Assembly: GCF_021261315.1 (NCBI RefSeq)
Contig: NZ_JAJSAX010000003.1
Span: forward strand, 1-64,000
Direction: 5' to 3'
DNA length: 64,000 bases
DNA from: Epilithonimonas sp. JDS
GTDB taxonomy: Bacteria; Bacteroidota; Bacteroidia; Flavobacteriales; Weeksellaceae
Below are positions 35,795 to 62,181 of the stretch, piece after piece; position 1 is the first letter of the stretch, and the number at the start of each line of letters is the position of its first letter. The position numbers were made by a program, and so were the translations under genes. The notes beneath the pieces are model-generated. The model saw nothing but the letters and a program-made list of their open reading frames with translations, searched no databases and was not told where the DNA came from.

Positions 35795-35815
35795 TAAGTG
35801 TTAAAATTACACTTA
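35795..35815 (-). promoter_or_regulatory. Candidate AraR operator before the transaldolase/transketolase operon
   Basis: The sequence TAAGTGT, seven bases, ACACTTA has perfectly inverted arms. Similar sites occur before araB (57312), the GH3 gene (62161), the GH127/GH146 gene (46169) and araR (46613). The position 24 bases upstream of the start codon fits either a repressor or an activator. The link to AraR is inference from placement. Confidence 0.65.
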
Positions 35816-35907
35816 TATATTTATCCGTACAATTATTTCTCTGACAATTTTAGAGGCTTTTTAATTTAACTATCTTAAATATCAACAGAAAATCGGAAAA
35901 TAATAAT

Positions 35908-37959
35908 TTAATTGTGGTGTCCCATATTGAGTTTGATTTTCTTCAAATCTTCCAATTCGTGAACCGGTTTTTCGATATCGTTAGGAATAGGCATTTTTGA
36001 AAATGTTTGGAAATAAAGCAGACACGCATCTTTCCACCAAACCGCATCTTTTTCCTGAATCTTCAATTTCGATTGTACAAATGTAAATCTGTCTTCATCC
36101 ACGTAGGTTTTTAATTTGTCCCATATTTTCTGATAATCACGGACGTTTTTAACACCTGAATCATATTTATAGGACAATTCTTCCCAAAGCGTTTTTCCGT
36201 CTTTCATTTTATAATTCCAAGGAACGTGATGGAACCAGAGAATCAGATTTTCAGGCGTTGTTTTGATGTTTCCATAAGTTTCATTTAATGGCGGAAAATA
36301 GAGTGAAACGGCATTGCTTCCGGTCTTGGTTCTGTCGAATCCTACGCCGTTTGCATCAGCTTTGTGGTAGTAAACCGGTGACCAGTCAGGTCTTCCGTTT
36401 TTGTAATCGCCCCAAGGTTCCGGACCGTAATGATGTCCTGAGGCAAAAATGTGGTGTAGTCCCAAAGGCATCATATAATCGACAGCCGTTTCCCGGGAAG
36501 AAAGCATCATTTCTGTGACCGGTTTTACGAAATCCTGATTATCGGTAAACGTCATTTTGATCCATTCATCTGCAATCTGTTCCGAAGACAAATCGTGGTT
36601 CCAGGCCAATCTTCCGAATGCGTACCAATTCGCCTGAGCAAAATGATGTCCCGTCCAATTTGTATCTTCTCCAATATTAGCTACAGCAGAAATCGCAGTG
36701 ATTTTATTTTTCATTAATGTTCCGTCTGTGAGTTTTGCAATCGTAGAACCTTTGCCATAAGAATAGGTGTCGCTGTCCAAATTTTCTTTGAATAATGGTG
36801 CCAGGAAAACCACATGATTTGAGAATCCTAAATATTCCTGTGTGATCTGAAACTCTACCATTTCGGGCGTTTTCTTCAAAGCTCCAAATAATGGATTAAA
36901 AGCTTCTCTCGGTTGGAAATCTATTGGTCCGTTTTTAATTTGAATGATCACATTATCACGAAATTTCCCGTCCAGCGGAACAAACTCCAGATAAGCCTGT
37001 TTTGCACGGTCTTCATTGCTTGGACTGTAAACAAATGCGCGCCACATTACAATACCATTGTAAGGTTTCAAAGCATCTGCCATCATATTGGCACCATCTG
37101 CGTGGGTTCTTCCGTAATCCTGCGGTCCAGGTTGACCTTCGGAATTGGCTTTCACTAAAAATCCTCCAAAGTCCGGAATTAATTTATAAATTTCAGACGC
37201 CTTCCCTTTCCACCAGTTTTGTACATTTTTATTCAATGGGTCAGAATTTTCCAATCCATCCAGAACTTTTGGTGACGAGAAATTAACCGACAGATAAACC
37301 TTAATCCCGTAAGGTCTGAAAATATCTGCGAGAATTTTGACCTTTTCCAAGTAATCTCTCCTTAGCATATTTGGAGATGCATTGACGTTGTTAAGAACCA
37401 CAGAATTGATTCCGATTGAGGCGTTGGCTCTTGCATATTCTTTATAACGAGGCGAAATTTTACCCGGCAAATCTTCCCATTTCCACAGCGAATGTCCTGC
37501 GTAACCGCGCTCAATTGTTCCATCCAGATTATCCCAATGGTTTAGGATTCTGACATCGTACGATGGTTTTTCTGTTATATTAAGATTTTCCAGATTTGAT
37601 TTGGTTTCCTGAAGGCGAAGAATGTGATAAACGCCGTACAACAATCCAATTTCTTTACTTGATGAAATGGTTATTTTATCAGATGTGGATTTGATTGTGT
37701 AACCGTCTTTAAGGTTTTTTAAAGCTGTTTCAGTTCTTAATTCTACAGCCTGTCCTTGCCACAAATCAGTCAATTCATTTTTAGCAATGTCGAGTGTGGG
37801 ATTTTTTCCTTTTGAAATGATTTTGTCTGCAGAAATTCCTTTTTTTACATTGGGGAAACGCAGCCATAATTTACTTCCGTCATCTGCGAAAATCATTAAT
37901 GGAAATAATAAGAATAAGATGATATAAACTCGGAAATTTTGCATTTGGAAATATTTCAA
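35908..37959 (-). CDS. Secreted GH67 alpha-glucuronidase
   Basis: GH67 enzymes release 4-O-methyl-glucuronic acid from the ends of xylan oligomers. The diagnostic run IIQIKNGPIDFQPREAFNPL followed by FGALKKTPEMVEFQITQEYLG is present, along with ILNHWDNLDGTIERGYAG and LHHIFASGHHYGPEPW. At 683 residues the length is normal. A signal peptide (FRVYIILFLLFPLMIFA) predicts export to the periplasm or beyond; the second methionine (37944) may be the true start and would tidy the signal peptide. It is the last gene of the run from the GH127/GH146 gene (46165) leftward: esterase, GPH transporter, GH10, GH43, GH67. Confidence 0.92.
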   Translation of the reverse strand: MKYFQMQNFRVYIILFLLFPLMIFADDGSKLWLRFPNVKKGISADKIISKGKNPTLDIAKNELTDLWQGQAVELRTETALKNLKDGYTIKSTSDKITISSSKEIGLLYGVYHILRLQETKSNLENLNITEKPSYDVRILNHWDNLDGTIERGYAGHSLWKWEDLPGKISPRYKEYARANASIGINSVVLNNVNASPNMLRRDYLEKVKILADIFRPYGIKVYLSVNFSSPKVLDGLENSDPLNKNVQNWWKGKASEIYKLIPDFGGFLVKANSEGQPGPQDYGRTHADGANMMADALKPYNGIVMWRAFVYSPSNEDRAKQAYLEFVPLDGKFRDNVIIQIKNGPIDFQPREAFNPLFGALKKTPEMVEFQITQEYLGFSNHVVFLAPLFKENLDSDTYSYGKGSTIAKLTDGTLMKNKITAISAVANIGEDTNWTGHHFAQANWYAFGRLAWNHDLSSEQIADEWIKMTFTDNQDFVKPVTEMMLSSRETAVDYMMPLGLHHIFASGHHYGPEPWGDYKNGRPDWSPVYYHKADANGVGFDRTKTGSNAVSLYFPPLNETYGNIKTTPENLILWFHHVPWNYKMKDGKTLWEELSYKYDSGVKNVRDYQKIWDKLKTYVDEDRFTFVQSKLKIQEKDAVWWKDACLLYFQTFSKMPIPNDIEKPVHELEDLKKIKLNMGHHN

Positions 37960-38037
37960 ATTGTTGTATTCTTACCATCGGTTTTTACAAATGGCTAATT
38001 ATATTGAACCTTTCGGGTTATTTGGAAACATTTAACT

Positions 38038-39003
38038 TTAGTCTAAACCTTCAATTGTTTTGAAAGTTCCGTCATTGTTATATTCCAGTTCTACCACTTT
38101 CATACTTCTGAGCCAGGTTTTACCTTCACTCGGAACAGAATCGTGGAAAAACAGATACCATTTCCCTTTGAATTCTACGATACTGTGATGCGTGGTCCAC
38201 CCTACAACAGGCGTAAGAATCACTCCTTGATATGTGAAAGGTCCGTACGGACTATCCCCGATGGCATAACATAAAAGATGGGAATCTCCTGTGGAATATG
38301 AGAAGTAATATTTGCCGTTGTACTTGTGCATCCATGAAGCTTCGAAGAATCTGTGAGGATTGCCGTGCAATAGCTCGTCTCCATTTTTGTCCAAAATCAA
38401 TAAGTCTTTTGGTTCTTCGGCAAACTCCAGCATATCATTACTCAAAAGCGCAACTTTAGATGGAATTGCAGGATCATCTTCATTTGGAATTACGGCAGAT
38501 TCCAATGCTTTATTATTTCTGTAACGTTGCAATTGTCCCCCCCAGATTCCTCCGAAATACATATAATATTTACCTTCGTCCTCAAAAATACAAGGATCAA
38601 TGCTGTAACTTCCCAACATCGGATGTTTCTCGGGAACGAAAGGCCCGTAAGGTTTATCACTCACCGCAACACCGATTTTGAAAATGTCGTTTTTATCTTT
38701 CAGAGGAAAATACATATAATATTTACCATCTTTGTAAGCCACATCACAATCCCAAAGCTGACGACCAGACCAGGGAATATCTTTGACAGAAAGTACAACG
38801 CCATGATCCGTCACCTCCCCATTTTCAACATCATCAAGAGAAAAAACGTGGTAATCATTCATATCAAAATGGTCGCCATTGTCATTTTCTTCGATGCCAC
38901 TTTCACGATCGTGAGACGGATAGATGTACAATTTACCTTCAAAAACGTGTACTGAAGGGTCTGCCATATAATCTTTTGGGAAAAGATATTTTGCTTTGTT
39001 CAT
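38038..39003 (-). CDS. GH43 glycosidase, cytoplasmic (beta-xylosidase or arabinofuranosidase)
   Basis: The 321-residue protein is a single GH43 five-bladed propeller without signal peptide. The catalytic set can be read: base D15 in YMADPSV, pKa modulator D136 in SIDPCIF, and acid E221 in RFFEASWMHKYNGKYYFSYS. Short GH43 proteins of this type act on xylo- or arabino-oligosaccharides inside the cell, which fits the GPH transporter encoded two genes upstream. Exact linkage and substrate are not decided by sequence. It lies 97 bases after the GH10 gene and 78 before the GH67 gene. Confidence 0.9.
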   Translation of the reverse strand: MNKAKYLFPKDYMADPSVHVFEGKLYIYPSHDRESGIEENDNGDHFDMNDYHVFSLDDVENGEVTDHGVVLSVKDIPWSGRQLWDCDVAYKDGKYYMYFPLKDKNDIFKIGVAVSDKPYGPFVPEKHPMLGSYSIDPCIFEDEGKYYMYFGGIWGGQLQRYRNNKALESAVIPNEDDPAIPSKVALLSNDMLEFAEEPKDLLILDKNGDELLHGNPHRFFEASWMHKYNGKYYFSYSTGDSHLLCYAIGDSPYGPFTYQGVILTPVVGWTTHHSIVEFKGKWYLFFHDSVPSEGKTWLRSMKVVELEYNNDGTFKTIEGLD

Positions 39004-39100
39004 TTTTTTATTTTTGATTTTAGATAATAGAATAGATAATAGAATATTTTTTTAAAACATTAAAGGTTTCTGAAATCTTGAAGGTTTGTCAGGATAGAAA

Positions 39101-40222
39101 TTATTTTCCTTTCGTTAATTGGATAATTTTTTCTATCACAGGTTTCGCCTGATTATTACGGTCAAAAAGTAACGGATAATCGGTTCTGCCTTTTACCGGG
39201 AAATCGTTTTTCCAGGATTGGGCATCGGTAGTTCCCCACAAGGTTACTCTTCTGATTTTATCCTGATGTTTCAAAAATAATCTGAAAAAATCCAGATAAC
39301 GGCTTTCCCACTCTTTTTTTACATTTTCGGGAAGTCCGGTTGTGTAAGGATTCATTTTTGCCTGATATTCCACGGTATCGGACACGTTGGCAGAAGTTCC
39401 CCAGGGAGAAGGAAGTGCGCTTATTTCCATTTCGGTGACATTGATTTTCACCCCGTTTTCTGTGTAGTCAAGAATTGCTTTTTCATATTCTGCAATTGAA
39501 GGTGTGTCGAGACCCACGTGCGTCTGCATTCCTACTCCATCGATGCGGATTCCTCTGGATTTTAAAGTCTGAACCATTTTGCTTACAGTCTTTACCTTTC
39601 CGGGATGCCACTCGTTGTAATCGTTATAGTATAATTCTGCATTCGGATCCGCTTCCTGAGCGTACTGAAATGCTAACGGAATAAATTCTTCTCCAAGAAT
39701 ATCATAAAATTTACTTTTACGGTAAGAACCATCTTCCATAATGGCTTCATTCACCACATCCCAGCCTTTCACACGACCTTTGTATCTCGTAACCACCGTT
39801 GTAATATGATTTTTCATTCTTTGCTTTAAAACTTCCGAAGAAACGTCTTTCCCATTTTGATCTACGAAAAACCATTTGGGCAACTGCGAATGCCAAATCA
39901 ATGTGTGACCGATAATGAACATTTTGTTTTCTTCTCCAAACAACACAAATTTATCAGCGTCATCAAAAAAGAATTTGCCTTCTTCTGGTTGAAGAAACAT
40001 CGATTTCATACAATTTTCTGCCACAATGGAACTGAACTGATTTTTAATAATTTCTACAGACTTTACATCCTTCTCATAAATCTGCGGAAGACTCATTGCT
40101 GTTCCGATGTAGAATTTATTTTTGAATGCATTCTTTAGGGAATCGTTGGAAGTTGCCGTGTTGACTGTCTTGCACGAGGCGGTCAAGGTTAAAATTCCTA
40201 ATAATGCTATAATTTTTTTCAT
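39101..40222 (-). CDS. GH10 endo-1,4-beta-xylanase, predicted lipoprotein
   Basis: The 373-residue enzyme cuts the xylan backbone. A lipobox (LTLTASC, C17) predicts a membrane-anchored lipoprotein. The acid/base is E159 in [13 protein letters not shown] and the nucleophile E264 in INVTEMEI, both in the expected context, and [12 protein letters not shown] and [12 protein letters not shown] complete the family picture. It is a single-domain enzyme without carbohydrate-binding module. It belongs to the operon with esterase, GPH transporter, GH43 and GH67. Products would be short xylo-oligomers, matching the downstream enzymes. Confidence 0.94.
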
Positions 40223-40264
40223 AATTTAATTTTTTTCAATTATTTATAATACACCGAATCTCTC

Positions 40265-40343
40265 GCAGCCCGGCTTGAACGGAGATCTTTTTGTGAAGCG
40301 AAGCGGAACAAAAAAGCGGGAGTGGAAGACGGAAAAGCTGCCC
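40265..40343. repeat. Dispersed compound inverted repeat between GPH transporter and GH10 genes
   Basis: The ends GCAGC/GCTGC and an inner TTTTTGT/ACAAAAA pair frame a GC-rich core (TGAAGCGAAGCGG). I recall this as a frequent intergenic element of Chryseobacterium-type genomes. It sits inside an operon, so it may form an RNA hairpin that adjusts transcript stability. Confidence 0.55.
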
Positions 40344-40360
40344 AAATTTTTATTATAGTA

Positions 40361-41815
40361 CTAATCTTTCGCTTTTCGTCTTTCTTTAAGGTCGTGCTCG
40401 ATTTCGATTTCCTTTTTCTTGTTGATTTCATAGAACATTAGCAGTCCACAAGCCAAAAAGAACGGAATAGATGGAAATACACTGACCAGCATTTTGGCTC
40501 CTGCAGAAACGGTTTCCGGCTGTATTACGTTAAATCCGCCTTCTGAAGAAATATAGCCATACTGACCGATGATATAAGCAACTAGTGAACTTCCAATGCT
40601 TAAACCAACCTTTAGGCCTACCATCATTGCCGAGAAAATAATTGCTGTCGCACGTCTGTTGTTTTTCCATTCTGAATAATCTGCAACATCCGCAATCATT
40701 GCCCAAAGCAAGGGCGTTCCGATTCCGTAGAAGAAACCGTGTAAAATCTGGGATAAGAACATCAATCCAACCGATTTTGGCGGATAAAATATAAATGCCA
40801 ATACAAATAATGTTGAAATAAAAAGTGAAGCGATAAATGCATCTCTTTTGCCATATTTATCTGCAAACTTTTTGGAGAAAGTGATTCCAACAATCATCAT
40901 AATGATTCCGCCTGCATTGAACAATCCGAAACCTGCTGAGCGAGGGTCTTCTCCGAAGAAATTCATCCCAATGGAATTGAAGAAATTGGTAATCGGCGAA
41001 ATAAATTGCTGAAGTGAAGCTTCGTCTACGTAGTTGTTGAAATAGTAAACATACGAACCGCCTTTCATTGCCAATGTTATGAAAATCAATGCCGTAACCG
41101 TTAACATAATAATCCACGGCTTGTTTTTCTTTAAATCCTTCAAATCAGCGCTTAAAGTAGATTCCTGTTCCGGTTTTGGAATCACTCTTTCTTTGGTTGT
41201 GAGAAAAGTGATGAGCAACATTACCGTTCCGATAATTGCAAGCCAGGTCATCACCACCTCGATTCCGGCTGCTTTGTCACCGTGTCCCGCAGACAAAATA
41301 ATCGGCAACATAAATACCTGAACGAAAAACTGTGCAAACATAACGGCAACAAAACGGTAAGATGAAATACTGTTTCTTTCACTCATATCGCCTGTGATAA
41401 CGCCACTTAATGCTGCGTAAGGTAAATTATTGGCAGCATAAAGCAATAATAAAACTGAGTAAGTAACTGCCGCATAAATCATTTTCCCTTTGTAAGAAAA
41501 ATCGGGTGTGCTGAATGCAAAAAGTGCCGCTGCCCCCAACGGAATTGCCGTTAATAAAATCCAAGGACGGAATTTTCCCCATTTTGTGCGGGTCCTATCT
41601 GCCAAAGCACCAATCAAAGGATTGAATACAAAACCAGCCAATAAACCTACCGTAAGGGTAATGATGGATGCATCTTCAGGTTTTAATCCGTAAATATCTG
41701 TGTAAAAATAAGCTAAATACGTCACTAAAGTCTGGAAAACCAGATTGGCGGCTAAATCTCCTAAACTGTAGCCGATTTTCTCAACGACAGATATTTTTTG
41801 AGATGAGTTGTTCAT
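40361..41815 (-). CDS. GPH-family (MelB/YicJ-type) sugar symporter
   Basis: The 484-residue protein has 12 membrane segments and the hallmarks of glycoside-pentoside-hexuronide symporters: VEKIGYSLGDLAANLVFQTL at the start, ALADRTRTKWGKFRPWILL in the first half, and NNRRATAIIFSAMMVGLKVG in the second. These carry xylosides, melibiose or glucuronides with cations through the inner membrane. Lying between GH10/GH43 and esterase genes, it most likely imports xylo-oligosaccharides, xylosides or aldouronic acids. The operon gaps are 33 bases upstream and 138 downstream. Confidence 0.9.
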   Translation of the reverse strand: MNNSSQKISVVEKIGYSLGDLAANLVFQTLVTYLAYFYTDIYGLKPEDASIITLTVGLLAGFVFNPLIGALADRTRTKWGKFRPWILLTAIPLGAAALFAFSTPDFSYKGKMIYAAVTYSVLLLLYAANNLPYAALSGVITGDMSERNSISSYRFVAVMFAQFFVQVFMLPIILSAGHGDKAAGIEVVMTWLAIIGTVMLLITFLTTKERVIPKPEQESTLSADLKDLKKNKPWIIMLTVTALIFITLAMKGGSYVYYFNNYVDEASLQQFISPITNFFNSIGMNFFGEDPRSAGFGLFNAGGIIMMIVGITFSKKFADKYGKRDAFIASLFISTLFVLAFIFYPPKSVGLMFLSQILHGFFYGIGTPLLWAMIADVADYSEWKNNRRATAIIFSAMMVGLKVGLSIGSSLVAYIIGQYGYISSEGGFNVIQPETVSAGAKMLVSVFPSIPFFLACGLLMFYEINKKKEIEIEHDLKERRKAKD

Positions 41816-41848
41816 TATAATAATTGATATTTGATAAATGATTGTTGA

Positions 41849-43762
41849 TTATTCTGTAGTGAAAGGCGATGCGGGAAGTCCTGTTTTATTTTTCAGATTT
41901 CCGTCGGGATTGTCTGCCCAATCGTACCTTACCGAAACGGGATTTGAAACGGTATCATTCCAGACAATTATTTTATTGCCTCCGATTTTTGATTTTGCCC
42001 ATTCGTATTTTCCATCTTTTCCTTTGATAGTGAATCCTTTCAGTTCTGAAACCGGTGCAAAATCATCAGTTCCGGTTTTAAAGGATAGAATGATTTTATT
42101 TCCATCGGTTTTCATTGACTGATAAACAGGTCCGTCTGCAATTATATTTTTCTTGTCAGCAACTTTTAATGCCTGTAAAGCCAATCTGTCTCCGACAGCT
42201 TTTTTGTTCAGAGGATGAATATCGTTCCACTCTCCGATATTGATAATTACGGCAAGTCCGGTGTTCGGAACTTTCAGCGAAACCTGACGTTGTTGTTCTC
42301 TGAGTTCTGCCCAATTGCTTTCAACAGGCTGTGCTTTTGGTTCCATAAAATTAGCCAGCTGTACTATAAAGAAAGGCATATCTTTCTGGTTCCATTTGTT
42401 TCTCCAATCGGTAATCATTGTGGTCAGCAGATCGCCGTATTCTTTTGGTTTTCCAGTGTTGCTTTCGCCTTGATACCAAATAGCGCCTTTGATGTTATAA
42501 TTGATAAGCGGATTAATCATCGAATTATACAATCCGGTTGGTTTCCAACGGATAAAAGTAGTTCCGGGCGCCATTTTTTCCATTTTAGCACCGATTTTAT
42601 ATTTCCATTCGGTTTTTAAATCGATTTTATGTCCGTCGATTTCTAAGTAATAAGGCTTGTCAGCAATGAACTGACCTTTTCCACTTCCATTTGAGATTCT
42701 CACAGCAATCACATTTTTCCCTTCTTTTAAAACACCTGCAGGAATATCATACCAGCGAGGAGGATATTCGTAGGTTACATTTCCTACTTTTGTTCCGTTG
42801 ATGTACGTCACATCGGCATCTTTTATTCTTCCTAAATTTAAAAATGCAGCTTTTCCTGCCTGATTTTTGGTTAAATTAATTTCTTTTCTAAACCAAACCG
42901 AACCTTCGAAAGAACCTTCTTTATCTTCCCAAGAACCTGGAATATTCATTGTTTTCCAGTCAGAGTCGTTTAGATCAAAATTTTCCCAATGTTGGTTTAA
43001 TCCAATATCGCTTTGGTCGAGTTCTGCATACCAAGCTTTGCTCAACGCCTGTTCGCCAGATTCCGTAGATTTTATCAAATCATCGTTCTGCCATTTTTTG
43101 GCTTCGTCCAGATATTCGGGATATTTTTTCAAAGAATTTTCATCCATCCACGCCTGAATCGGAGAACCACCCAAACTTGCGTGGATAATTCCGACAGCAA
43201 CTTTATTTTTCTGACTTAATTCTTTTGCGAAAAAATAGGCAACTCCCGAAAAATTAAGAATCGTTTGAGGATTTGTCGCTTCCCATTTTCCTCCATCAAG
43301 CTCAGTCTGAGGTGATTTAAAATTATATTTTTGAGGTACTGTAAAAAATCTGATGTTTTGGTTGTTCGCATTTTTGATTTCGTCAGCATACAGCGGAGTT
43401 AGTCTGCGCATTGGCAGTTCCATATTCGATTGTCCTGAAGCCAACCAAACATCGCCGATGAGAATATCCTTCAATGTAATTTCATTGATGGTCATCGTGT
43501 AAGGACCTCCGGCTTTCTGCTCGGGAAGTGTAATTTTCCAGTTTCCGGTTGCGTCGGCGGTTGTAGTGTATTTTTTGTTGAGAAAATTAACTTCTACTTT
43601 TTCTCCGACATCGGCTTTTCCCCAGAGATTCAGCTTTTGATTACGTTGCAAAACCATTCCGTCTGAAACCAGTGCTGGAAGCGTGATTTTTGCATCAATA
43701 AGGGAAATACATAATGAGCCTACGAATAAAATTAATATTTTAAAAAAGATTCTGTTTTTCAT
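41849..43762 (-). CDS. Secreted sialate-O-acetylesterase-type esterase (likely acetylxylan esterase)
   Basis: The 637-residue protein has a signal peptide (FFKILILFVGSLCISLIDA), the GDS-like block WLASGQSNMELPM with the catalytic serine, and a C-terminal DIHPLNKKAVG with the Asp-His pair. A beta-sandwich (DWKTMNIPGSWED, GSVWFRKEINL) is inserted in the middle, as in SASA-family esterases. Family members remove acetyl groups from sialic acids or, in plant-polysaccharide loci, from xylan. The genomic setting favours xylan. It lies 27 bases after the GH127/GH146 gene. Confidence 0.87.
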   Translation of the reverse strand: MKNRIFFKILILFVGSLCISLIDAKITLPALVSDGMVLQRNQKLNLWGKADVGEKVEVNFLNKKYTTTADATGNWKITLPEQKAGGPYTMTINEITLKDILIGDVWLASGQSNMELPMRRLTPLYADEIKNANNQNIRFFTVPQKYNFKSPQTELDGGKWEATNPQTILNFSGVAYFFAKELSQKNKVAVGIIHASLGGSPIQAWMDENSLKKYPEYLDEAKKWQNDDLIKSTESGEQALSKAWYAELDQSDIGLNQHWENFDLNDSDWKTMNIPGSWEDKEGSFEGSVWFRKEINLTKNQAGKAAFLNLGRIKDADVTYINGTKVGNVTYEYPPRWYDIPAGVLKEGKNVIAVRISNGSGKGQFIADKPYYLEIDGHKIDLKTEWKYKIGAKMEKMAPGTTFIRWKPTGLYNSMINPLINYNIKGAIWYQGESNTGKPKEYGDLLTTMITDWRNKWNQKDMPFFIVQLANFMEPKAQPVESNWAELREQQRQVSLKVPNTGLAVIINIGEWNDIHPLNKKAVGDRLALQALKVADKKNIIADGPVYQSMKTDGNKIILSFKTGTDDFAPVSELKGFTIKGKDGKYEWAKSKIGGNKIIVWNDTVSNPVSVRYDWADNPDGNLKNKTGLPASPFTTE

Positions 43763-43789
43763 AGCAAATTTGAGTTCTGCAGTTTATTT

Positions 43790-46168: not shown

Positions 46169-46189
46169 TAAATGTTATTTCTACATTTC
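46169..46189 (-). promoter_or_regulatory. Candidate AraR operator before the GH127/GH146 operon
   Basis: The plus strand reads TAAATGT, seven bases, ACATTTC. The site ends three bases from the ATG, so a bound protein would block transcription elongation or initiation there. It differs from the perfect site at 35795 in two arm positions. Confidence 0.5.
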
Positions 46190-51754: not shown

Positions 51755-51757
51755 AAT

Positions 51758-52915: not shown

Positions 52916-52936
52916 AGTCTGAATGATCTTCCAAGA

Positions 52937-54433: not shown

Positions 54434-54483
54434 ATTTTTAGTTGATGGTTGTTTTTTGATGGTTGATGGTTTTTACTGTTGCG

Positions 54484-54567
54484 TTGTTATTCCGAGGAAC
54501 GAGGAATCTCTGTCTGTTATATTGAAACGAGATTGTTTACTACACCCTGTTTAGTTCAGAATGACAA
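54484..54567. repeat. Dispersed inverted repeat between araA and araD
   Basis: The ends TTGTTATTC and GAATGACAA pair, and the inner part holds CGAGGAACGAGGAATCTC facing GAGATT. It is of the same type as the element at 33211 and occurs in the leader of araA. Confidence 0.6.
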
Positions 54568-54588
54568 AAATTTTATTTTAAATTTTAA

Positions 54589-55287: not shown

Positions 55288-55363
55288 TTTTTATTAAATA
55301 ATTTAAAGATTAAGATTCTTAAATTGCGTTGTGTTTTAGCTCTATGCCTGATTTTTATTTTCC

Positions 55364-55405
55364 TTGGCTTTAGCCGAAACTTAAATAGGTTTCGGCTAAA
55401 GCCAA
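55364..55405. repeat. Perfect 17-bp inverted repeat in the araB-araD gap
   Basis: The arms TTGGCTTTAGCCGAAAC and GTTTCGGCTAAAGCCAA pair perfectly around an 8-base loop. It lies inside the ara operon, after araB, and could slow RNA decay from the 3' side. I recall similar elements in other flavobacterial genomes, but the link is not shown here. Confidence 0.75.
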
Positions 55406-55456
55406 TTTGATTGTCATTTAATAAATAGGAAAAGCCCTTTCCTATTAATTTGTGTC

Positions 55457-55490
55457 AGCCTTGTCAAAGTTTTGGAATCTTGACAAGGCT
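55457..55490. repeat. Second hairpin in the araB-araD gap
   Basis: The arms GCCTTGTCAA and TTGACAAGGC pair around a 12-base loop, and on the plus strand CTTTT follows. Close by is an AGCCCGACCTG stretch resembling the edge of the dispersed repeat at 40265. Confidence 0.65.
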
Positions 55491-55533
55491 TTTCAACAGC
55501 TAATTGCACGTAGCCCGACCTGATTTCTATCAA

Positions 55534-57231
55534 CTATAAACTGTAAGCCTTCAACTTCTTTTTAGACTTTATATTATTTTCAGTGAAATCTGCGAGAATC
55601 TGATATTGGTTCATCAGTTCTGCATATTTTTCCACGTGTGCTGCCTGTGGGAAATATTCGGCTTCAAAATCGGAACCCATTTTTTGGCTTGCTTCCTGAA
55701 CATTTGCATAAATACCTGCCGAAACTGCGGCATAAATCGCTGCGCCCAAAGCCGGAGCCTGGTCTGATGCTGCTACGACAATCGGCATATTAAGCACGTT
55801 TGCCAAGGTTTGCATAATGAACGGAGATTTTCTAGCAACACCACCTATTCCGATTACTTTTTCGATTTTCACGCCTTCTTCTTCAAAACGGTCGACAATT
55901 TTTTTAGAACCAAAACAAATGGCGTTGACTAAAGCTTTGAAAATTTGCGGTGCTTTTGTCCCGAGTGAAAGATTGCTGATAGCCGCTTTCAGTTCTTGAT
56001 CGGCATCAGGCGTTCTTCTTCCATTAACCCAATCCAATGCAATAGGAACGGCTTCGGAAAGAGGGATTTTTTCAGCTTCTAAAGTAAGATTTCGAATGAG
56101 ATTGTTTTCTATTTCTTCCTTTAATTGTTGTTTTTGATGTTCATTGATGATATTAGAATTCATCAAAACGTTTTGAGTTGGCCACATCAGAATGTCTTTG
56201 TACCAAGCCAACAAATCTCCGAACGCCGATTGACCAGCCTCAAGACCAATCAATCCCGGGATAACCGAACCATCTACCTGTCCGCAAATTCCTTTGACGG
56301 TTTTGTCTCCGATAATTTCGTTGGGTGCAACCATAATATCGCAGGTGGAAGTTCCCATAATTCTGATGAGTGTGTTCTCCTCCACTTTTGCACCGACTGC
56401 TCCTGAATGGGCGTCGAAAGTTCCTACGGCAATCACAGTGTTGGTTGTCAATCCTAATTTTGCAGCCCATCCTTGGTTTAAATTTCCTGCAACCTCATCG
56501 GAAGTGTAGGTTTTATCATACAATCTGTCTCGAAGTCCGGCTAAAGATGGGTCTAACTGACCGAGAAAGTCTTTAGAAGGAAGTCCGCCCCACGATTCGT
56601 GCCACATTGCTTTGTGACCTGCGGCGCAACGGCTTCTTTTGAAAGTTGATAAATCCTGATGGTCGGAAAGGAGAAACGTAATATAATCGCAATGCTCCAT
56701 CCAACTGTAAGACGCATTTTTCACTTTTTCGTCTTCTCGGTTGATGTGAAGAATTTTTGCCCAAAACCATTCGGAAGAATAGATTCCGCCTTCAAATTTG
56801 GTGTAATCTTCACCGCCCCAATTTCTTGATAAATGATTAATTTCTTCCGCTTCATCAACGGATGTATGGTCTTTCCACAACACCATCATTGCATTTGGAT
56901 TTTGTTCGAAACCAGGCGTTAAAGCCAATGCAATTCCTTCTTTGTTTACCGGAAGCGGCGATGAACCTGTGGTATCAATACAAATGCTGACAATATTTTC
57001 AGGTGCTACTCCACTTTCTTTTACCACATCGGAAACGGTTTTTTCTAAACCCTCGATATGGTCTAAAGGATGTTGACGGAATTGATTTTGCTCCGGCTGA
57101 CAGAACTTTCCATCTTTCCATCTTTGGTAATAACTTACGGATGTTGCGAGCTCTGCTCCATTTTCTGTATCAATCAGAACTGCACGTACGGAATCTGTTC
57201 CATAATCTAATCCGATAACATATTTCTTCAT
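55534..57231 (-). CDS. araB: L-ribulokinase
   Basis: AraB is an FGGY-family kinase that phosphorylates L-ribulose. Motifs include KKYVIGLDYGTDSVRAVLID, the ATP region GTFDAHSGAVGAKVEEN with TLIRIMGTSTCDIM, and the C-terminal GIGGVARKSPFIMQTLANVL. The 565-residue length is typical for ribulokinase and longer than xylulokinase. It opens the operon araB-araD-araA-galM-SSS. The upstream gap holds a candidate AraR operator (57312-57332) and a TATATTTG promoter box 15 bases downstream of it. Confidence 0.95.
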   Translation of the reverse strand: MKKYVIGLDYGTDSVRAVLIDTENGAELATSVSYYQRWKDGKFCQPEQNQFRQHPLDHIEGLEKTVSDVVKESGVAPENIVSICIDTTGSSPLPVNKEGIALALTPGFEQNPNAMMVLWKDHTSVDEAEEINHLSRNWGGEDYTKFEGGIYSSEWFWAKILHINREDEKVKNASYSWMEHCDYITFLLSDHQDLSTFKRSRCAAGHKAMWHESWGGLPSKDFLGQLDPSLAGLRDRLYDKTYTSDEVAGNLNQGWAAKLGLTTNTVIAVGTFDAHSGAVGAKVEENTLIRIMGTSTCDIMVAPNEIIGDKTVKGICGQVDGSVIPGLIGLEAGQSAFGDLLAWYKDILMWPTQNVLMNSNIINEHQKQQLKEEIENNLIRNLTLEAEKIPLSEAVPIALDWVNGRRTPDADQELKAAISNLSLGTKAPQIFKALVNAICFGSKKIVDRFEEEGVKIEKVIGIGGVARKSPFIMQTLANVLNMPIVVAASDQAPALGAAIYAAVSAGIYANVQEASQKMGSDFEAEYFPQAAHVEKYAELMNQYQILADFTENNIKSKKKLKAYSL

Positions 57232-57311: not shown

Positions 57312-57332
57312 TAAATGTAAATATTACACTTA
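57312..57332 (-). promoter_or_regulatory. Candidate AraR operator before araB
   Basis: The plus strand reads TAAATGT, AAATATT, ACACTTA. A stretch of more than 30 bases around it, including TTTTAAA before the site and ATT after it, is nearly identical to the one before the GH3 gene. Confidence 0.65.
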
Positions 57333-57367
57333 ATTTTATTTTTTCCTGTATTAATGGTATTTTGCGG

Positions 57368-59341
57368 TTATTTTATTTTTAAAACTACAAAAGAATTGGA
57401 TGGAATCTGAACAGAAAATTTCCCTTTTTTAATCACAGAATTCTCTTCAAGAGGTTTAATATTTTCGGTTTGGAAATTATTTTCTGCAGAAAGTTGTGAA
57501 GCTGTCAAGATTATTTTGGTCAGTTTGCTTCCTAATTTTATGTTTTTTGGATTGATTTCAATTGACTTTTCCTGAGAATCTGTATTAACTATTTTGATCA
57601 TTACTTCATTATTTTTACCATCTTTCACTGCGGATGCAAAGAGTTGATTTTGTCCTTTTACAGGATTCCCATTTTCAGAAATCTTAATTAAATCTGTTCC
57701 TTTATTGTTGGAAAATAATTTCTGAACGTAATAATTGGGTGTTGCATACGACTGAAGATTATTAAACCAAATTAAATCCGGTGTCCATTGCCAACCGTCT
57801 GCGTGGGCAAAAAGCGGGGCGTAAGAAGTCATCGTGACAACATCGGCATTTCTTTCAAGCCCAGTCATAAAAGCGGCTTCTGAAAGTGCGGTCTGCCAGT
57901 TATTTTTATTATCTGGTTTTACTACGCCAACCGATTGTGCCGCATATTCCCCGGCGAAAACTTTTGGTCCGGAACGGTCGTAATCATCATATCTTCCGGC
58001 ATTTTTTGTAAACCATTCGGGCGAATTGTAATAATGTTCATCTACAATCTGTGCATTGAGTTTTTTGAGCTCTTTCCAGCCATATTCAAAGAATTCTCCG
58101 TCGGGCGACGGTCCGCTTCCTGAAATGATTTTAATATCCGGATATTTGGTGTGAATGGCTTTTTCAAAAATTTTGTAACGCTCGATGTAATCTTCTCCCC
58201 ATTGCTCGTTTCCGACGCCAATATATTTCATATTGAATGGTTTTGGATGTCCCATTTCAGCACGGATTTTCCCCCATTTTGTATTAGAATCACCATTGGC
58301 AAACTCAATTAAATCCAGAGCATCCTGAACGTAAGGATTTAATTCCTCCAAATGAACCAATTCGCCCGTATTGAACTGGCACGCCATTCCACTGCTCAAA
58401 ATCGGTAACGGCTCTGCTCCCAAATCTTCCGAAAGCTGGAAATATTCATAAAAACCCAATCCGAACGACTGATAATAATCGGGAGTCAGGCGATGCGCAA
58501 ATCCTGAGCTCCATTTGTTGATGAGATATTCTCTGTCAGCGACATTTCCCAGCGTTTTTTTCCATTGATATCTTTCGGCAAGTGTTCTTCCTTCGACTAT
58601 ACAACCTCCGGGAAAACGCAAAAATCCTGGTTGCATGTCGTATAATTTCTGAACCAAATCTTTACGCAAACCGCCTTTTCTTCCCTTCCAAGTATCTTGT
58701 GGGAAGAGGGAAATCATATCCATATTGATGACGCCGTTTCCGGTAAAAGTGATTTGAAGTTTTGCTTTTTCAACTGTTCTTGATGGTGTGAAAACCGCAT
58801 TATATTTTTGCCAGCCCTTTCCTTTGATGAGAATGGGAACTGTCGAGATTATCTTTCCGTTTTCGTCAATTAGACTTGCGTTAACTGCGGAAATATTACC
58901 TGATACTTTTTCTAAATCGAAGCCGAAATCATATCGGGAATTCTGATGAAGCCCGATTCCTCTGAAACCTTCATTCTCCAAAATATAATTTTTGTCATTG
59001 TAAATGGTGATTCTTGCATAGTTTTTATTGGTTTTGGAATTATCCGAATAAATCGTCAGAAAACCGGAATTCAAATTAGGAGAAAGTGTTTTTGTATTTT
59101 GCTGTTTCCAACCCATTAACGGTTCGTCAAATTCAAAACTTCGGTTTTTGATGAGTTCTGCATAAATACCGCCATCTGCTGCAAAATTGATGTCTTCGAA
59201 GAAAATTCCGTACATCGTTGGCTGAATTTTGATGTTGGTAGTACTTCCATCCAAATCAAAAGTAAACTTTGAGGTTTGTGCTGATGAAAATGCAACACAG
59301 GTTGAGAGAAGAAGGGTGAAGATTTTATTTTTAGTTTTCAT
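57368..59341 (-). CDS. Secreted GH51 alpha-L-arabinofuranosidase
   Basis: The 657-residue enzyme removes alpha-linked arabinofuranose from arabinoxylan or arabinan. The acid/base is E379 in VGNEQWGEDY and the nucleophile E465 in FAGEYAAQS. The N-terminal part (IQPTMYGIFFEDINFAADGG, RFPGGCIVEGRTL) is typical, and a carbohydrate-binding beta domain seems inserted before the barrel (YDFGFDLEKVSGNISA). A signal peptide (FTLLLSTCVAFSSAQ) predicts export. It lies 95 bases after the GH3 gene and just before the araB control region. Confidence 0.93.
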   Translation of the reverse strand: MKTKNKIFTLLLSTCVAFSSAQTSKFTFDLDGSTTNIKIQPTMYGIFFEDINFAADGGIYAELIKNRSFEFDEPLMGWKQQNTKTLSPNLNSGFLTIYSDNSKTNKNYARITIYNDKNYILENEGFRGIGLHQNSRYDFGFDLEKVSGNISAVNASLIDENGKIISTVPILIKGKGWQKYNAVFTPSRTVEKAKLQITFTGNGVINMDMISLFPQDTWKGRKGGLRKDLVQKLYDMQPGFLRFPGGCIVEGRTLAERYQWKKTLGNVADREYLINKWSSGFAHRLTPDYYQSFGLGFYEYFQLSEDLGAEPLPILSSGMACQFNTGELVHLEELNPYVQDALDLIEFANGDSNTKWGKIRAEMGHPKPFNMKYIGVGNEQWGEDYIERYKIFEKAIHTKYPDIKIISGSGPSPDGEFFEYGWKELKKLNAQIVDEHYYNSPEWFTKNAGRYDDYDRSGPKVFAGEYAAQSVGVVKPDNKNNWQTALSEAAFMTGLERNADVVTMTSYAPLFAHADGWQWTPDLIWFNNLQSYATPNYYVQKLFSNNKGTDLIKISENGNPVKGQNQLFASAVKDGKNNEVMIKIVNTDSQEKSIEINPKNIKLGSKLTKIILTASQLSAENNFQTENIKPLEENSVIKKGKFSVQIPSNSFVVLKIK

Positions 59342-59370
59342 TGATACTATTTTTTAATTGTTCAAACAGA

Positions 59371-59395
59371 CACTTCGACTACGCTCAGTGTGACA
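59371..59395. repeat. Short dispersed repeat (CACTTCGACTACGCTCAGTG core)
   Basis: This 25-base stretch has CACT/AGTG ends and a TGACA tail. I recall it as a very common intergenic repeat in Flavobacteriia. It sits between GH3 and GH51 genes. Confidence 0.55.
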
Positions 59396-59436
59396 TCTCT
59401 AATACTAAATGTTTAATGGAGCATGTCAGTCTATAA

Positions 59437-62064
59437 TTACTTGACTTTCAGCTGAACACTTTTTAATCCTGCATTATCAGAAGTTCCGCCGTAGAAAATG
59501 GTATAATCTCCGGATTTTGAAACCAAATCATCGGCTTTTTCATCATAAAATTTGAATGACTCCTGAGAAATTGTCAGTTGTATGTTTTTTGTTTCTTTAG
59601 ATTTAATCAAAACTCTTTCAAAAGCTCTTAAAGTCTTCACAGGCGCTAAAACATCATTATTTCTTTTCACATACACCTGCACCACTTCCTCTCCATGACT
59701 TTCAGAAATATTTTTAACAGGAATATTTATCGTAATATTTTCACTAGAACTGATGTTGTATTTGCTCAATTTTGCATCTCCATAATTGAATTTTGAATAA
59801 CTCAAACCGTGACCGAATGGATACAAAGGTTTTTCCGTCATATAGCGGTAAGTTCTTCCCTGCATATCATAATTTTCAAAACCTTGGTGCTTACTCGTTT
59901 TAGAAAGTGCATTATCCAGTTGCTCCAGATTTTTGTAAAAAGTAATCGGCAATCTTCCGGAAGGATTGTAATCTCCCGCCAAAACATCCGCAACAGCAGT
60001 TCCGCTGGATTGTCCGCCATACCAAGCATTCAGCAAAGCGTCATAATTTTTTTCTTCCTGTTCCAGACCAAGCGAACTTCCTGTACATAATACAAAAACG
60101 ACAGGTTTTCCGGTTTTTCTTAATTCCGTTAATAATTCACGCTGAACTTTCGGAAGTTCTATCGAGGTTTTATCGCCACCTTTGAAACCTTCGGCGCTTA
60201 CCAACATTTCTTCGCCTTCCAGACTTGGCGACAATCCGCCAGCAAAAATGATAACGTCAGCATCTTTCACTTTTTCTTTCACCGAAGCGAAATTTACAGG
60301 ATCTTTTTTGTAAACTTCAAACGCAATGCTTACGTATTTTCCTTTCTGGCTGTGACGTAGTTCTATCTGATACTCTTTTCCTTTCTGCATTTTTACAGGA
60401 AATTCCGAAGGATGTCTTGCGTCAGGACCTTTTCTGGTAGCAATTTCTTTTCCGTTAACAAAAAGCGTGTAAATGTCTGATGTTGCGGCAGAAAATATCA
60501 CTTCGCCGGAATAACTGCTCTTAAAAATACCCGAAATTTTTGCTGATGTATTTTCTCTGGCAACTCCTGCAGCGAGTTGTGTTCCGCCAAAACTATTATA
60601 CGTGATTGAAGTATTATTGACGGAAGTATTGACCGGTTGACCTTTGAATTCATTGTTATTAAAGAATTCCACCTCCATCCCTTTTTGTCCATTTTTCTGA
60701 CTGACAAAATTTTGATAGAGTGAAGTTCTTGCCGTAGGATCTGCAACTTCACTTCCCTTTTCATAAATGATTTCAGCATTTGGAAATTTGGCTTTAATTC
60801 CATCTAAAATCGTTACGATTGAAGAAGGTGTTCCGTTGTAATTTCCCAACTGCATAATTCTGTCATCAGCATTGGGACCTACAACGGCAATTTTTTTAAT
60901 ATTTTTATTTAAAGGCAGGATGTTTTTTTCATTTTTCATCAGTACAATAGATTTCTGAGCCATTTTCAAAGCCTGTTTCTTATGTTCATCCGAATCTACC
61001 ACCGAATACGGAATTTGATTCCAATGCACGGAAGATTTGGGATCAAGCATACCTAATTCAAACCAGCCTTTCAGGATTCTGCGCATTGAAATATCGAGGT
61101 CTTTTTCGGTGATTAATCCGCTTGCCAGAGATTTATTGAGGTTATTATAAGTATCTCCACATTCCAAATCTGTGGAATGTTTTAGAGCATCTGCTGCTGC
61201 ACTTTTTTCGTCGGGATGCGTTCCGTGGTATTTTTCCTGATAGAAATCTGCCAAAGCCCAACAGTCTGAAACGACCATTCCGTCATACTTCCATTTACCT
61301 CGGAGAATTTCATTAAGCAAAGTATTATTGGCACAACAAGGTTGTCCGTCGAAAGCGTTGTAAGCGCACATCACTTCTCTTACATTTCCTTCCAAAACCA
61401 GTGCTTTGAAAGCCGGAAGATAGGTCTCATACAGATCTCTTTTGGAAATTTCGGCATTGTAGGAATGTCGGTTCCATTCCGGGCCGCTGTGAACGGCGAA
61501 ATGTTTGGCGCAAGCGTGGGTTTTAAAATATTTAGGATCATTTCCCTGCAAACCTTTTACCGCAGCAACACCCAAAACAGAAGTAAGATAAGGATCTTCT
61601 CCGTAAGTTTCCTGACCTCTTCCCCATCTTGGATCCCGGAAAATATTGATATTCGGAGTCCAGAATGTAAGACCTTCGTAACGTCCGGTTTTACTGGCTT
61701 CATCGAAAGATTTGTTATATTTTGCACGGGCTTCATCAGAAATCATTTCAAAGGTTTTGAGATGTTCCGGAACGTCCCAGGTCGCTGCCAAACCAATGGC
61801 TTGTGGAAAAACAGTCGCTGTTCCAGCTCTGGCGACGCCGTGAAGTGCCTCGTTCCACCATCCGTAAGCGGGAATTTCGAGTCTTGGAACTGCTTTGGAA
61901 TTATCAATCATCATTCCGATTTTTTCATCAACAGTTAATAATCCGAGAAGATTCTCGATTCTCTGTTCGACAGGAAGTTTTGGATTTTGAAAGGAATGTT
62001 TGAAATTCTGTGCGGATGAAAATGCACAAATGTAGATGAATAAGGAAAGTATAATCTTTTTCAT
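59437..62064 (-). CDS. Secreted GH3 beta-xylosidase/glucosidase with inserted PA14 domain
   Basis: The 875-residue enzyme has a signal peptide (FIYICAFSSAQ), the GH3 barrel with nucleophile D267 in YDGMVVSDCWALADF, and the second alpha/beta domain (IAVVGPNADDRIMQLGNYNG). A PA14-type beta domain is inserted (MEVEFFNNNEFKGQPV, SSYSGEVIFSAATSDIYTLFVNG), and a C-terminal fibronectin-like domain follows (LYPFGHGLSYSKFNYGD). PA14 insertions of this kind often bind or shape the sugar site. With the other genes nearby, a beta-xylosidase acting on xylo-oligomers is most likely, but glucosidase activity cannot be excluded. Upstream lie an AraR-like site and a TATATTTG box. Confidence 0.9.
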   Translation of the reverse strand: MKKIILSLFIYICAFSSAQNFKHSFQNPKLPVEQRIENLLGLLTVDEKIGMMIDNSKAVPRLEIPAYGWWNEALHGVARAGTATVFPQAIGLAATWDVPEHLKTFEMISDEARAKYNKSFDEASKTGRYEGLTFWTPNINIFRDPRWGRGQETYGEDPYLTSVLGVAAVKGLQGNDPKYFKTHACAKHFAVHSGPEWNRHSYNAEISKRDLYETYLPAFKALVLEGNVREVMCAYNAFDGQPCCANNTLLNEILRGKWKYDGMVVSDCWALADFYQEKYHGTHPDEKSAAADALKHSTDLECGDTYNNLNKSLASGLITEKDLDISMRRILKGWFELGMLDPKSSVHWNQIPYSVVDSDEHKKQALKMAQKSIVLMKNEKNILPLNKNIKKIAVVGPNADDRIMQLGNYNGTPSSIVTILDGIKAKFPNAEIIYEKGSEVADPTARTSLYQNFVSQKNGQKGMEVEFFNNNEFKGQPVNTSVNNTSITYNSFGGTQLAAGVARENTSAKISGIFKSSYSGEVIFSAATSDIYTLFVNGKEIATRKGPDARHPSEFPVKMQKGKEYQIELRHSQKGKYVSIAFEVYKKDPVNFASVKEKVKDADVIIFAGGLSPSLEGEEMLVSAEGFKGGDKTSIELPKVQRELLTELRKTGKPVVFVLCTGSSLGLEQEEKNYDALLNAWYGGQSSGTAVADVLAGDYNPSGRLPITFYKNLEQLDNALSKTSKHQGFENYDMQGRTYRYMTEKPLYPFGHGLSYSKFNYGDAKLSKYNISSSENITINIPVKNISESHGEEVVQVYVKRNNDVLAPVKTLRAFERVLIKSKETKNIQLTISQESFKFYDEKADDLVSKSGDYTIFYGGTSDNAGLKSVQLKVK

Positions 62065-62137
62065 TAGGAAATATTTAAAAATGCTTTCGGAAGATGAATT
62101 TTATTTCAAACTGAAGAAATACCAATTCTACTAAAAA

Positions 62138-62145
62138 CAAATATA
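62138..62145 (-). promoter_or_regulatory. TATATTTG promoter box of the GH3 gene
   Basis: The box matches TAnnTTTG and lies 15 bases downstream of the candidate operator at 62161, the same geometry as before araB. Confidence 0.6.
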
Positions 62146-62160
62146 ACATTCTATTTTAAA

Positions 62161-62181
62161 TAAATGTATATATTACACTTA
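62161..62181 (-). promoter_or_regulatory. Candidate AraR operator before the GH3 gene
   Basis: The plus strand reads TAAATGT, ATATATT, ACACTTA, nearly the same as the araB site in arms, spacer and flanks. Confidence 0.65.

What the first reader, a model, noticed from the sequence alone, without database searches (positions are those of the whole stretch)
35795..62181. Five copies of a TAARTGT-N7-ACAYTTA palindrome define a candidate AraR regulon
Sites at 35795, 46169, 46613, 57312 and 62161 all lie in intergenic control regions: before fsa-tkt-tkt (and perhaps galK-galT), the GH127/GH146-to-GH67 operon, araR itself, araB-D-A-galM-SSS, and GH3. I noticed no comparable site inside coding sequence, though I could not scan exhaustively. 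The pattern predicts that one Nudix-type regulator controls polymer breakdown, uptake, arabinose conversion and the non-oxidative pentose phosphate steps.
Basis: partly seen in the sequence, partly recalled or inferred. Interest (0 to 1): 0.75.

Follow-up and report, generated by a model that had tools for sequence, protein, structure and literature searches.

The report
Arabinose-responsive repressor and its operators
Five near-identical DNA palindromes in this flavobacterial genome are very probably the docking sites of one arabinose-sensing repressor that switches plant-fibre breakdown, arabinose uptake and sugar-phosphate recycling genes on together; the repressor is a relative of a known gut-Bacteroides protein, with an apparently wider set of target genes.

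Summary
Three sites match TAARTGT-N7-ACAYTTA exactly and are the only exact copies in the 4.17-Mb genome. The other two differ in one outer base. All five carry the core AARTGT-N7-ACAYTT (shuffle expectation 0.06) and are intergenic. Genome-wide the core occurs 8 times: these five, one upstream of a xylR-like paralogue, and two others; the reversed control gives 2. The regulator is 48% identical to Bacteroides thetaiotaomicron AraR, whose operators, structure and arabinose response are published (PMC4666351), and keeps the arabinose-contacting residues. Among 148 family genomes, exact sites occur in 26 of 26 with the araR orthologue and 13 of 122 without. Sites keep their place before the same genes in relatives, including fsa-tkt or galK; a different tkt-fsa pair sits behind such a site in Flavobacterium/Lutibacter. 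The AraR-regulon reading is well supported by comparison; nothing was bound or measured. New details: operators overlap Bacteroidota core promoter elements in gene-specific ways; the flavobacterial branch differs at two DNA-contact residues and uses ATGT half-sites; a conserved site links AraR to xylR. An extension of a known system: moderate interest.

The parts
46692..47378 (+). araR: NrtR-family regulator, Nudix-like domain plus winged helix, 228 aa. The ATG at 46692 is the likely start; the TTG at 46674 lies inside the -7 box.
   Evidence: Pfam NUDIX, NrtR_WHD, AraR_C; best solved structure BtAraR 5bs6, E 1.1e-64; residues; -7 box TAACTTTG at 46669-46676
35795..35815 (-). operator of fsa-tktN-tktC(-galK-galT): TAAGTGTAATTTTAACACTTA on the - strand, both halves GTGT; the spacer holds a -7-like TAATTTTA (35802-35809) with TTG 20 bp upstream (35830-35832)
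46169..46189 (-). operator of the GH127/146 operon: GAAATGTAGAAATAACATTTA on the - strand, both halves ATGT, ending 3 bp before the ATG; abuts a -7-like TATTTTA (46190-46196; TATTTTAG with the operator's first base, an imperfect match to TAnnTTTG) with TTTG (46216-46219) 19 bp upstream
46613..46633 (+). operator upstream of araR: AAAGTGTTTAACATACATTTA, 58 bp before the ATG and 35 bp before the -7 box
57312..57332 (-). operator of araB-araD-araA-galM-SSS: TAAGTGTAATATTTACATTTA on the - strand, GTGT half upstream, ATGT half proximal; covers the -33 region of the -7 box TATATTTG (57289-57296)
62161..62181 (-). operator of GH3-GH51: TAAGTGTAATATATACATTTA on the - strand, same geometry; -7 box TATATTTG at 62138-62145
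35118..35771 (-). fsa/talC-type transaldolase or fructose-6-phosphate aldolase
   Evidence: TIGR00875 287.4 bits against cut-off 245.95; PF00923
34266..35114 (-). transketolase N-terminal half (tktN)
   Evidence: PF00456; NCBIfam transketolase models, below the cut-offs set for full-length proteins
33300..34253 (-). transketolase C-terminal half (tktC)
   Evidence: PF02779 and PF02780
30923..33218 (-). galK (31956-33218) and galT (30923-31996), probably the distal part of the fsa-tkt operon
   Evidence: a site sits directly before galK in 6 relatives
35908..46165 (-). GH127/146 - acetylesterase-like - GPH symporter - GH10 - GH43 - GH67 operon
50027..57231 (-). araB (55534-57231), araD (54589-55287), araA (52937-54433), galM (51758-52915), SSS transporter (50027-51754)
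57368..62064 (-). GH3 (59437-62064) and GH51-type arabinofuranosidase (57368-59341)
   Evidence: family number GH51 recalled from the ASD1/Alpha-L-AF_C domains

Best explanation
The five palindromes are operators of the adjacent araR product, an NrtR-family L-arabinose-responsive repressor. An AraR dimer binds the two (A/G)TGT half-sites, whose centres lie 11 bp, about one helical turn, apart. Without arabinose it covers the -33 region (araB, GH3), the -7 box (fsa/galK) or the start region (GH127/146) of sigma-A promoters and blocks RNA polymerase. L-arabinose bound in the degenerate Nudix pocket rotates the winged helices and frees the DNA, so that hemicellulose-degrading enzymes, uptake, araBDA and an inducible transaldolase/transketolase set (with galK-galT) are expressed together. 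Shown here: site sequences, positions, conservation, co-occurrence with araR, residue conservation, spacing to promoter-like boxes. Inferred: binding, arabinose as effector, repression as the sign of control, operon extents, and that the boxes are the promoters in use.
For: Exact sites occur only here in the genome; core 8 against control 2. Across 148 family genomes: 26 of 26 araR+ have exact sites (72 sites, control 4) versus 13 of 122 araR- (16 sites, control 12) (Fisher 1.3e-19, not corrected for relatedness). Site order and neighbours are largely conserved in relatives at 73-97% AraR identity. In 60 araR loci from outside the family (56-65% AraR identity), 51 have core sites: 90 sites, control 0, 2 of 90 inside ORFs. 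The published BtAraR operators share the architecture, were gel-shifted, and were released by 0.01-0.5 mM L-arabinose (PMC4666351). R34, R86, H131 (arabinose) and K179, R180, N181 (DNA) are kept in 81 of 81 flavobacterial-type AraRs examined. A TAhhTTTG -7 box lies 14-15 bp after the operator in 24 of 24 araB and 18 of 18 GH3 promoters that have a site.
Against: No binding or expression data exist for this genome. K184 and R205, called absolutely conserved DNA contacts in the paper, are S and K here. The araR operator lies 25-37 bp upstream of its -7 box (26 of 27), not an obvious repressing position. fsa has no site within 320 bp in 4 of 17 cases (G123, G139, and G010, G096 where it lies inside another operon). 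galK has no site directly before it in G020, G112, G098 and G043. 9 of 60 outside-family araR loci have no core site in the stretch held. With a looser pattern, AAGTGT-N7-ACAYTT, 94 of 148 family genomes match, so at that looseness presence alone is not diagnostic. Related genomes are not independent.
Confidence: 0.9

Rival explanations
1. The palindromes are operators of another regulator, for example the XylR-like paralogue or a Crp-like protein, and sit near araR only because the sugar genes are clustered.
For: A site of the same type lies 188-312 bp upstream of the xylR-like gene in most araR+ relatives examined. XylR is of the same NrtR family and also passes the Pfam AraR_C cut-off.
Against: Of 30 xylR upstream regions, the strict core is present in 20 of 25 from genomes with araR and in 0 of 5 from genomes without it. 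29 of 30 xylR upstream regions carry two or more TTATCAT elements (4 of the 5 araR- ones), which look like XylR's own sites. The published AraR operator architecture matches. The Crp-type motif in B. theta is TATGTTnTAnAACATA, unlike these.
Confidence: 0.04
2. Real AraR operators, but AraR acts as an activator, or dually, at some of them, notably at its own gene, where the operator lies upstream of the -33 region.
For: The araR operator lies 25-37 bp upstream of the -7 box in 26 of 27 cases; the xylR-linked site lies 188-312 bp upstream of the start codon.
Against: Operators at araB, GH3, fsa and GH127/146 cover core promoter positions, where a bound protein normally represses; BtAraR is released from DNA by arabinose (PMC4666351).
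Confidence: 0.12
3. The motif is a by-product of AT-rich intergenic DNA.
For: The window is 34-45% G+C in 4-kb steps. At 2 mismatches there are 117 matches in the genome and 160 for the reversed control, so the loose motif is meaningless.
Against: At zero mismatches the core gives 5 against 0.06 expected in the window and 90 against 0 for the control in outside-family araR loci; positions are conserved between genomes whose surrounding sequence has diverged.
Confidence: 0.01

Closest known systems
BtAraR (BT0354) and the AraR regulon of Bacteroides/Prevotella (NrtR family; PMC4666351, PMC3878776)
   Same: Regulator family, 48% identity, arabinose-contacting residues R34, R86, H131, intercalating R180, GTGT-N7-ACAC operator architecture, control of araBDA, mutarotase, transporter and extracellular arabinan/xylan enzymes.
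   Different: DNA contacts K184 and R205 are S/N and K in nearly all of the flavobacterial branch; half-sites are (A/G)TGT, often one of each, whereas the B. theta sites in the published oligos and the one site found near araR in each of four BtAraR relatives are GTGT/GTGT. The regulon appears to include fsa-tkt, galK-galT and xylR, which the passages I read do not list ('transketolase' occurs 0 times in the main text of either paper).
XylR (BT0791-type) NrtR-family regulator
   Same: Same domain architecture; a paralogue lies about 41 kb beyond the window (C19:104571-105293), next to an FGGY-kinase gene.
   Different: Xyl-type relatives are 35-36% identical to the window AraR; its promoters carry TTATCAT repeats. 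I named it by neighbourhood and did not compare it with BT0791.
AraR of Clostridium/Bacillus (unrelated regulator of the same name)
   Same: In C. acetobutylicum, AraR is reported to bind upstream of araK-araE2-araA2-tal-tkt1-epi, so arabinose control of transaldolase and transketolase has a precedent (PMC3507653, passages).
   Different: A different protein (recalled: GntR-type DNA-binding domain fused to a LacI-type sensor), with different operators (recalled).
NrtR (ADP-ribose-responsive NAD repressors)
   Same: Nudix-like plus winged-helix architecture.
   Different: Binds ADP-ribose; the NCBIfam NtrR equivalog hit of 126.6 bits is far below its cut-off of 400.

Membership tests
Bacteroidota AraR (NrtR family) | Nudix-like domain plus NrtR/AraR winged helix | tested here: met
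   NUDIX 47.1, NrtR_WHD 80.7, AraR_C 44.6 bits, all over their cut-offs. Not discriminating: the XylR-like paralogue also passes AraR_C (38.4 against 23.8).
Bacteroidota AraR (NrtR family) | Closer to AraR than to other NrtR-family groups | tested here: met
   48% to BtAraR, against 35-36% to the XylR-like relatives; no tree was built
Bacteroidota AraR (NrtR family) | Arabinose H-bonding residues R34, R86, H131 | tested here: met
   Present in the window protein and in 81 of 81 flavobacterial-type sequences
Bacteroidota AraR (NrtR family) | DNA contacts K179, R180, N181 | tested here: met
   81 of 81
Bacteroidota AraR (NrtR family) | DNA contacts K184, K204, R205, reported as absolutely conserved in AraR orthologues | tested here: not met
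   Window: S, K, K. Over 81 sequences K184 is S or N in 78, R205 is K in 80, K204 is K or R in 76. I therefore file it as a variant branch, not as a copy of BtAraR.
Bacteroidota AraR (NrtR family) | 21-bp semipalindromic operators with GTGT half-sites before arabinose genes | tested here: met
   Five sites, same spacing; base 1 of the half-site is A or G here
Bacteroidota AraR (NrtR family) | Clustering of araR with arabinose genes | tested here: met
   Window gene order and relatives
Bacteroidota AraR (NrtR family) | Binding to the operators, relieved by L-arabinose | not testable with these tools
   Needs gel shift or footprinting
ADP-ribose-responsive NrtR | NAD-gene regulator equivalog score | tested here: not met
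   NF050029 126.6 bits against cut-off 400

The most novel reading that the evidence does not exclude
In flavobacteria the AraR DNA-reading surface has changed (R183 to T/I, K184 to S/N, R205 to K) so that the first base of each half-site may be A as well as G, and this freedom is used to let one stretch of DNA serve as both operator and core promoter element. The half-site facing the gene is ATGT where it falls on the -33 region (araB 24 of 24, GH3 18 of 18); the spacer reads TAhhTTT(A/G) where the -7 box lies inside the operator (fsa and galK 15 of 15); the outer base is usually G where the operator abuts the -7 box (GH127/146, 21 of 26). Each promoter thus has a hard-wired and different competition between repressor and sigma factor, giving an order of induction along the degradation pathway, and a further site couples arabinose to xylR.
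Probability: 0.35. Interest if true: 0.55.

Novelty: new variant of a known kind. Interest (0 to 1): 0.42.

Why it matters
It extends a regulator characterised in gut Bacteroides to environmental flavobacteria, adds the non-oxidative pentose phosphate steps, galactose genes and xylR to its predicted reach, and gives a compact, testable case of operator and promoter sequence being shared, in a phylum with an unusual sigma factor. It would also help annotate the regulation of polysaccharide utilisation in Chryseobacterium, Epilithonimonas, Flavobacterium and relatives. It does not overturn anything known.

Tried and rejected
Loose motif scanning: at 2 mismatches the genome has 117 matches and the reversed control 160, so nothing is claimed from 2-mismatch matches found by scanning alone. 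The window's 2-mismatch sites at 18178, 20987 and 25409 were set aside for this reason. (Two-mismatch matches are counted only at a conserved place before a named gene.)

The nine one-mismatch sites elsewhere in the genome: C2:16695, C19:375995, C23:87970, C23:126059 and C24:89690 lie inside ORFs; C1:1285631 overlaps the end of one ORF and abuts another; C12:356216 is upstream of an ATPase-like gene (by eye) and has a broken GTGT core; C19:160508 is upstream of an AraC-like gene (by eye). I regard these eight as background. C19:105605, upstream of the xylR-like gene, was kept. The core match at C1:944089 was not examined further.

The sigma-70 promoter scan is of the wrong promoter type for this phylum (60 found, 49.8 expected in shuffles). 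The terminator scan (25 found, 13.2 expected) did not settle where the fsa-tkt operon ends.

Literature: searches for a flavobacterial AraR regulon (AraR, arabinose, Flavobacteri; NrtR, arabinose, Chryseobacterium; XylR, AraR, NrtR, Bacteroidetes) and for transketolase in the Bacteroides regulon (BT0347, arabinose) listed no paper whose title or abstract start describes either. The library lacks most subscription journals, so this is weak evidence of absence. From memory, B. theta may carry a transketolase gene (BT0347) near its arabinose operon; I could not verify this, so the novelty of the pentose-phosphate link is uncertain.

Not run: structure prediction (a 48% identical crystal structure with DNA exists), a genome-wide weight-matrix scan, and a tree of AraR and XylR.
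Full report
Observation. The 21-bp pattern TAARTGT-N7-ACAYTTA is found exactly at 35795, 57312 and 62161, and with one outer-base mismatch at 46169 and 46613. The 19-bp core AARTGT-N7-ACAYTT is exact at all five; the shuffle expectation for the window is 0.06, and 0 of 100 shuffles reach five. All five lie outside ORFs. In the whole 4.17-Mb genome the 21-bp pattern has only these three exact places (the reversed control has 0 in G000). The core has eight: these five, one upstream of a xylR-like paralogue (C19:105606), C1:944089 and C1:1285632, against two for the control. So six of eight fit a sugar regulon and two equal the control count. At two mismatches the motif is noise (117 against control 160).

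The regulator. The gene beside two of the sites encodes a 228-aa protein with Pfam NUDIX, NrtR_WHD and AraR_C domains, all over cut-off. AraR_C does not separate AraR from the XylR-like paralogue, which also passes it. The best solved relative is BtAraR (5bs6 and three further entries, E 1.1e-64), 48% identical, against 35-36% for XylR-like relatives. PMC4666351 (abstract, sections 7, 11, 12, 14 and 15, and some passages seen) reports that BtAraR binds 21-bp semipalindromic sites, that L-arabinose releases it (impaired at 0.01 mM, abolished at 0.5 mM), and gives structures with arabinose and with DNA. The EMSA oligos hold, among others, AAAGTGTTACTTTTACACCCA and AAAGTGTAAAAAAGACACTTA. The window operators have the same layout. 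Arabinose-bonding R34, R86 and H131 and DNA-contacting K179, R180 and N181 are kept in 81 of 81 flavobacterial-type AraRs (the window, 20 Weeksellaceae loci and 60 others, which kept the best 80 of 588). K184 is S or N in 78 of 81 and R205 is K in 80 of 81. The paper calls these contacts absolutely conserved, so the flavobacterial proteins form a distinct branch.

Co-occurrence. One search covered 148 genomes of the family; 26 have an AraR at 73% identity or more, and the next best hit is 44%. One search covered 148 family genomes with the same handles for exact sites: 26 of 26 araR+ genomes have 1 to 6 (72 sites; reversed control 4), and 13 of 122 araR- genomes have 1 or 2 (16 sites; control 12). 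Fisher p is 1.3e-19, uncorrected for relatedness. Three of the 13 (G018, G042, G059) are one genus with two exact sites each, so a more distant regulator of this type may exist there. With a looser 19-bp pattern with one fixed GTGT half, 94 of 148 genomes match, so the contrast depends on the strict pattern.

Position. In stretches of up to 40 kb round araR in 25 relatives (shorter where contigs end), the sites stay with the genes. Counting the window, a site with at most 2 mismatches lies within 320 bp of the start in 24 of 27 araB, 18 of 21 GH3, 26 of 26 GH127/146, 27 of 27 araR and 13 of 17 fsa genes located. Some of the misses have a site farther off: G147 before araB, G060 and G142 before GH3. 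Where gene order changes, sites follow: in G111 and G054, where GH51 is separated from GH3, GH51 has its own exact site. In six genomes (G060, G142, G091, G116, G124, G145) a site with 0 or 1 mismatch precedes galK with no fsa or tkt ORF detected between; in G020, G112, G098 and G043 galK shows no such site, and in G123 and G139 fsa has none. E. hispanica (G119) has a second araR cluster (73% identical AraR) whose fsa-tkt also has an exact site.

Outside the family. In the 60 loci outside Weeksellaceae (Flavobacterium, Maribacter, Zunongwangia and others; AraR 56-65% identical), 51 have core sites: 90 sites against 0 control, 2 of 90 inside ORFs although ORFs cover 91%. In L242, L246, L259, L260 and L261 a site precedes a tkt-fsa pair next to araR whose tkt is only 32-33% identical to the window tktN. 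This is the best evidence that the pentose-phosphate link is not an accident of one gene order. The window genome has second fsa (81%), tktN (67%) and tktC (76%) genes elsewhere, so I read the AraR-linked set as inducible extra capacity for pentose flux. The fsa protein is of the TIGR00875 fsa/talC type. The genome has only two PF00923 matches, these two 81%-identical proteins, so they probably supply transaldolase (inference).

Promoter geometry. PMC9723704 and PMC6847099 (passages) give the Bacteroidota sigma-A elements -33 TTTG (weak in F. johnsoniae) and -7 TAnnTTTG (-12 to -5), refined to TAHHTTTG, and a median 5' UTR of 24 bp in F. psychrophilum. A TAhhTTTG box lies 14-15 bp after the operator in 24 of 24 araB and 18 of 18 GH3 promoters with a site; the background is 82 in 43,820 positions of all upstream regions, these boxes included. 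This puts the operator at about -48 to -28. In those 42 promoters the upstream half is always GTGT and the proximal half always ATGT. In fsa and galK promoters with a site (13 and 2), TAhhTTT(A/G) starts at position 7 of the operator in 15 of 15, with TTG 20 or 21 bp upstream in 12 of 15, so the -7 box would be inside the operator. In GH127/146, 22 of 25 promoters with a core site have TATTTT(T)A abutting the operator and the operator 2-3 bp from the ATG; 18 of these have TTTG 18 or 19 bp upstream. Only 10 of 26 there fit TAhhTTT(A/G) strictly, so this -7 assignment is weaker. In araR the -7 box is 25-37 bp downstream of the operator in 26 of 27. Thus gene-specific operator variants coincide with the promoter element they overlap. 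That one caused the other is inference. The TTG start listed for araR at 46674 falls inside this -7 box (46669-46676), so ATG 46692 is the likelier start.

Specificity. Four BtAraR relatives with R183, K184 and R205 (55-81% identical) each have one GTGT-N7-ACAC site in about 16-17 kb (control 0) and no core site with an ATGT half; ATGT halves with other flanks were not sought. Of 11 relatives from another family with R at 184 and K at 205, 3 have AARTGT core sites, 5 have GTGT-N7-ACAC sites, and 4 have neither. In the 60 outside-family flavobacterial-type loci, 62 of 90 sites are one GTGT plus one ATGT half; in the Weeksellaceae stretches 78 of 116. This fits a relaxed base-1 reading in the flavobacterial branch, but numbers are small on the Bacteroides side.

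xylR. The xylR-like gene sits beside an FGGY-kinase gene. Of 30 xylR upstream regions fetched (33 genomes matched), a site with at most 2 mismatches lies 188-312 bp upstream in 24 of 25 araR+ genomes (G078 lacks it) and in 0 of 5 araR- genomes. With the strict core the counts are 20 of 25 and 0 of 5, p = 0.0018. I infer that AraR touches xylose control in these bacteria; the distance leaves the mechanism open.

Verdict. The additions are the pentose-phosphate, galactose and xylR links, the altered DNA contacts, and the interlocking of operators with promoter boxes.

Noticed in passing
G000:C19:105605-105625 (L009; L136): AraR-type site 311 bp upstream of a second NrtR-family gene (xylR-like, next to an FGGY-kinase gene); conserved in most araR+ relatives examined, absent in the five xylR+ araR- ones.
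   Followed up: yes
L144-L173, within 330 bp upstream of xylR: Two to five TTATCAT elements in 29 of 30 xylR promoters (none in L171), including palindromes such as ATGATAAGCTTATCAT; probably XylR's own operators.
   Followed up: partly
window 46669-46676 and 46674: The ORF lister's TTG start of araR lies within a -7 box TAACTTTG; ATG 46692 is the likelier start.
   Followed up: yes
G119 (Epilithonimonas hispanica) C3:74000-93999 (L085): A second araR cluster with its own GH127/146, araBDA, GH51 and fsa-tkt genes and three exact sites; two AraR proteins (89% and 73% identical to the window's) coexist in one genome.
   Followed up: partly
window 47382-49939: A DUF294/CBS/cNMP-binding protein and a DnaQ-like exonuclease gene lie between araR and the SSS gene; several relatives have other genes or none there.
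   Followed up: no
G018:C76:96853-97515 and C76:99808-99828 (L138): A genome without a close AraR has an NrtR-family gene (41% identical) about 2.3 kb from an exact AraR-type site.
   Followed up: no
window 25409-25429: Two-mismatch site between genes, upstream of a T9SS-tail protein gene; at background level.
   Followed up: no
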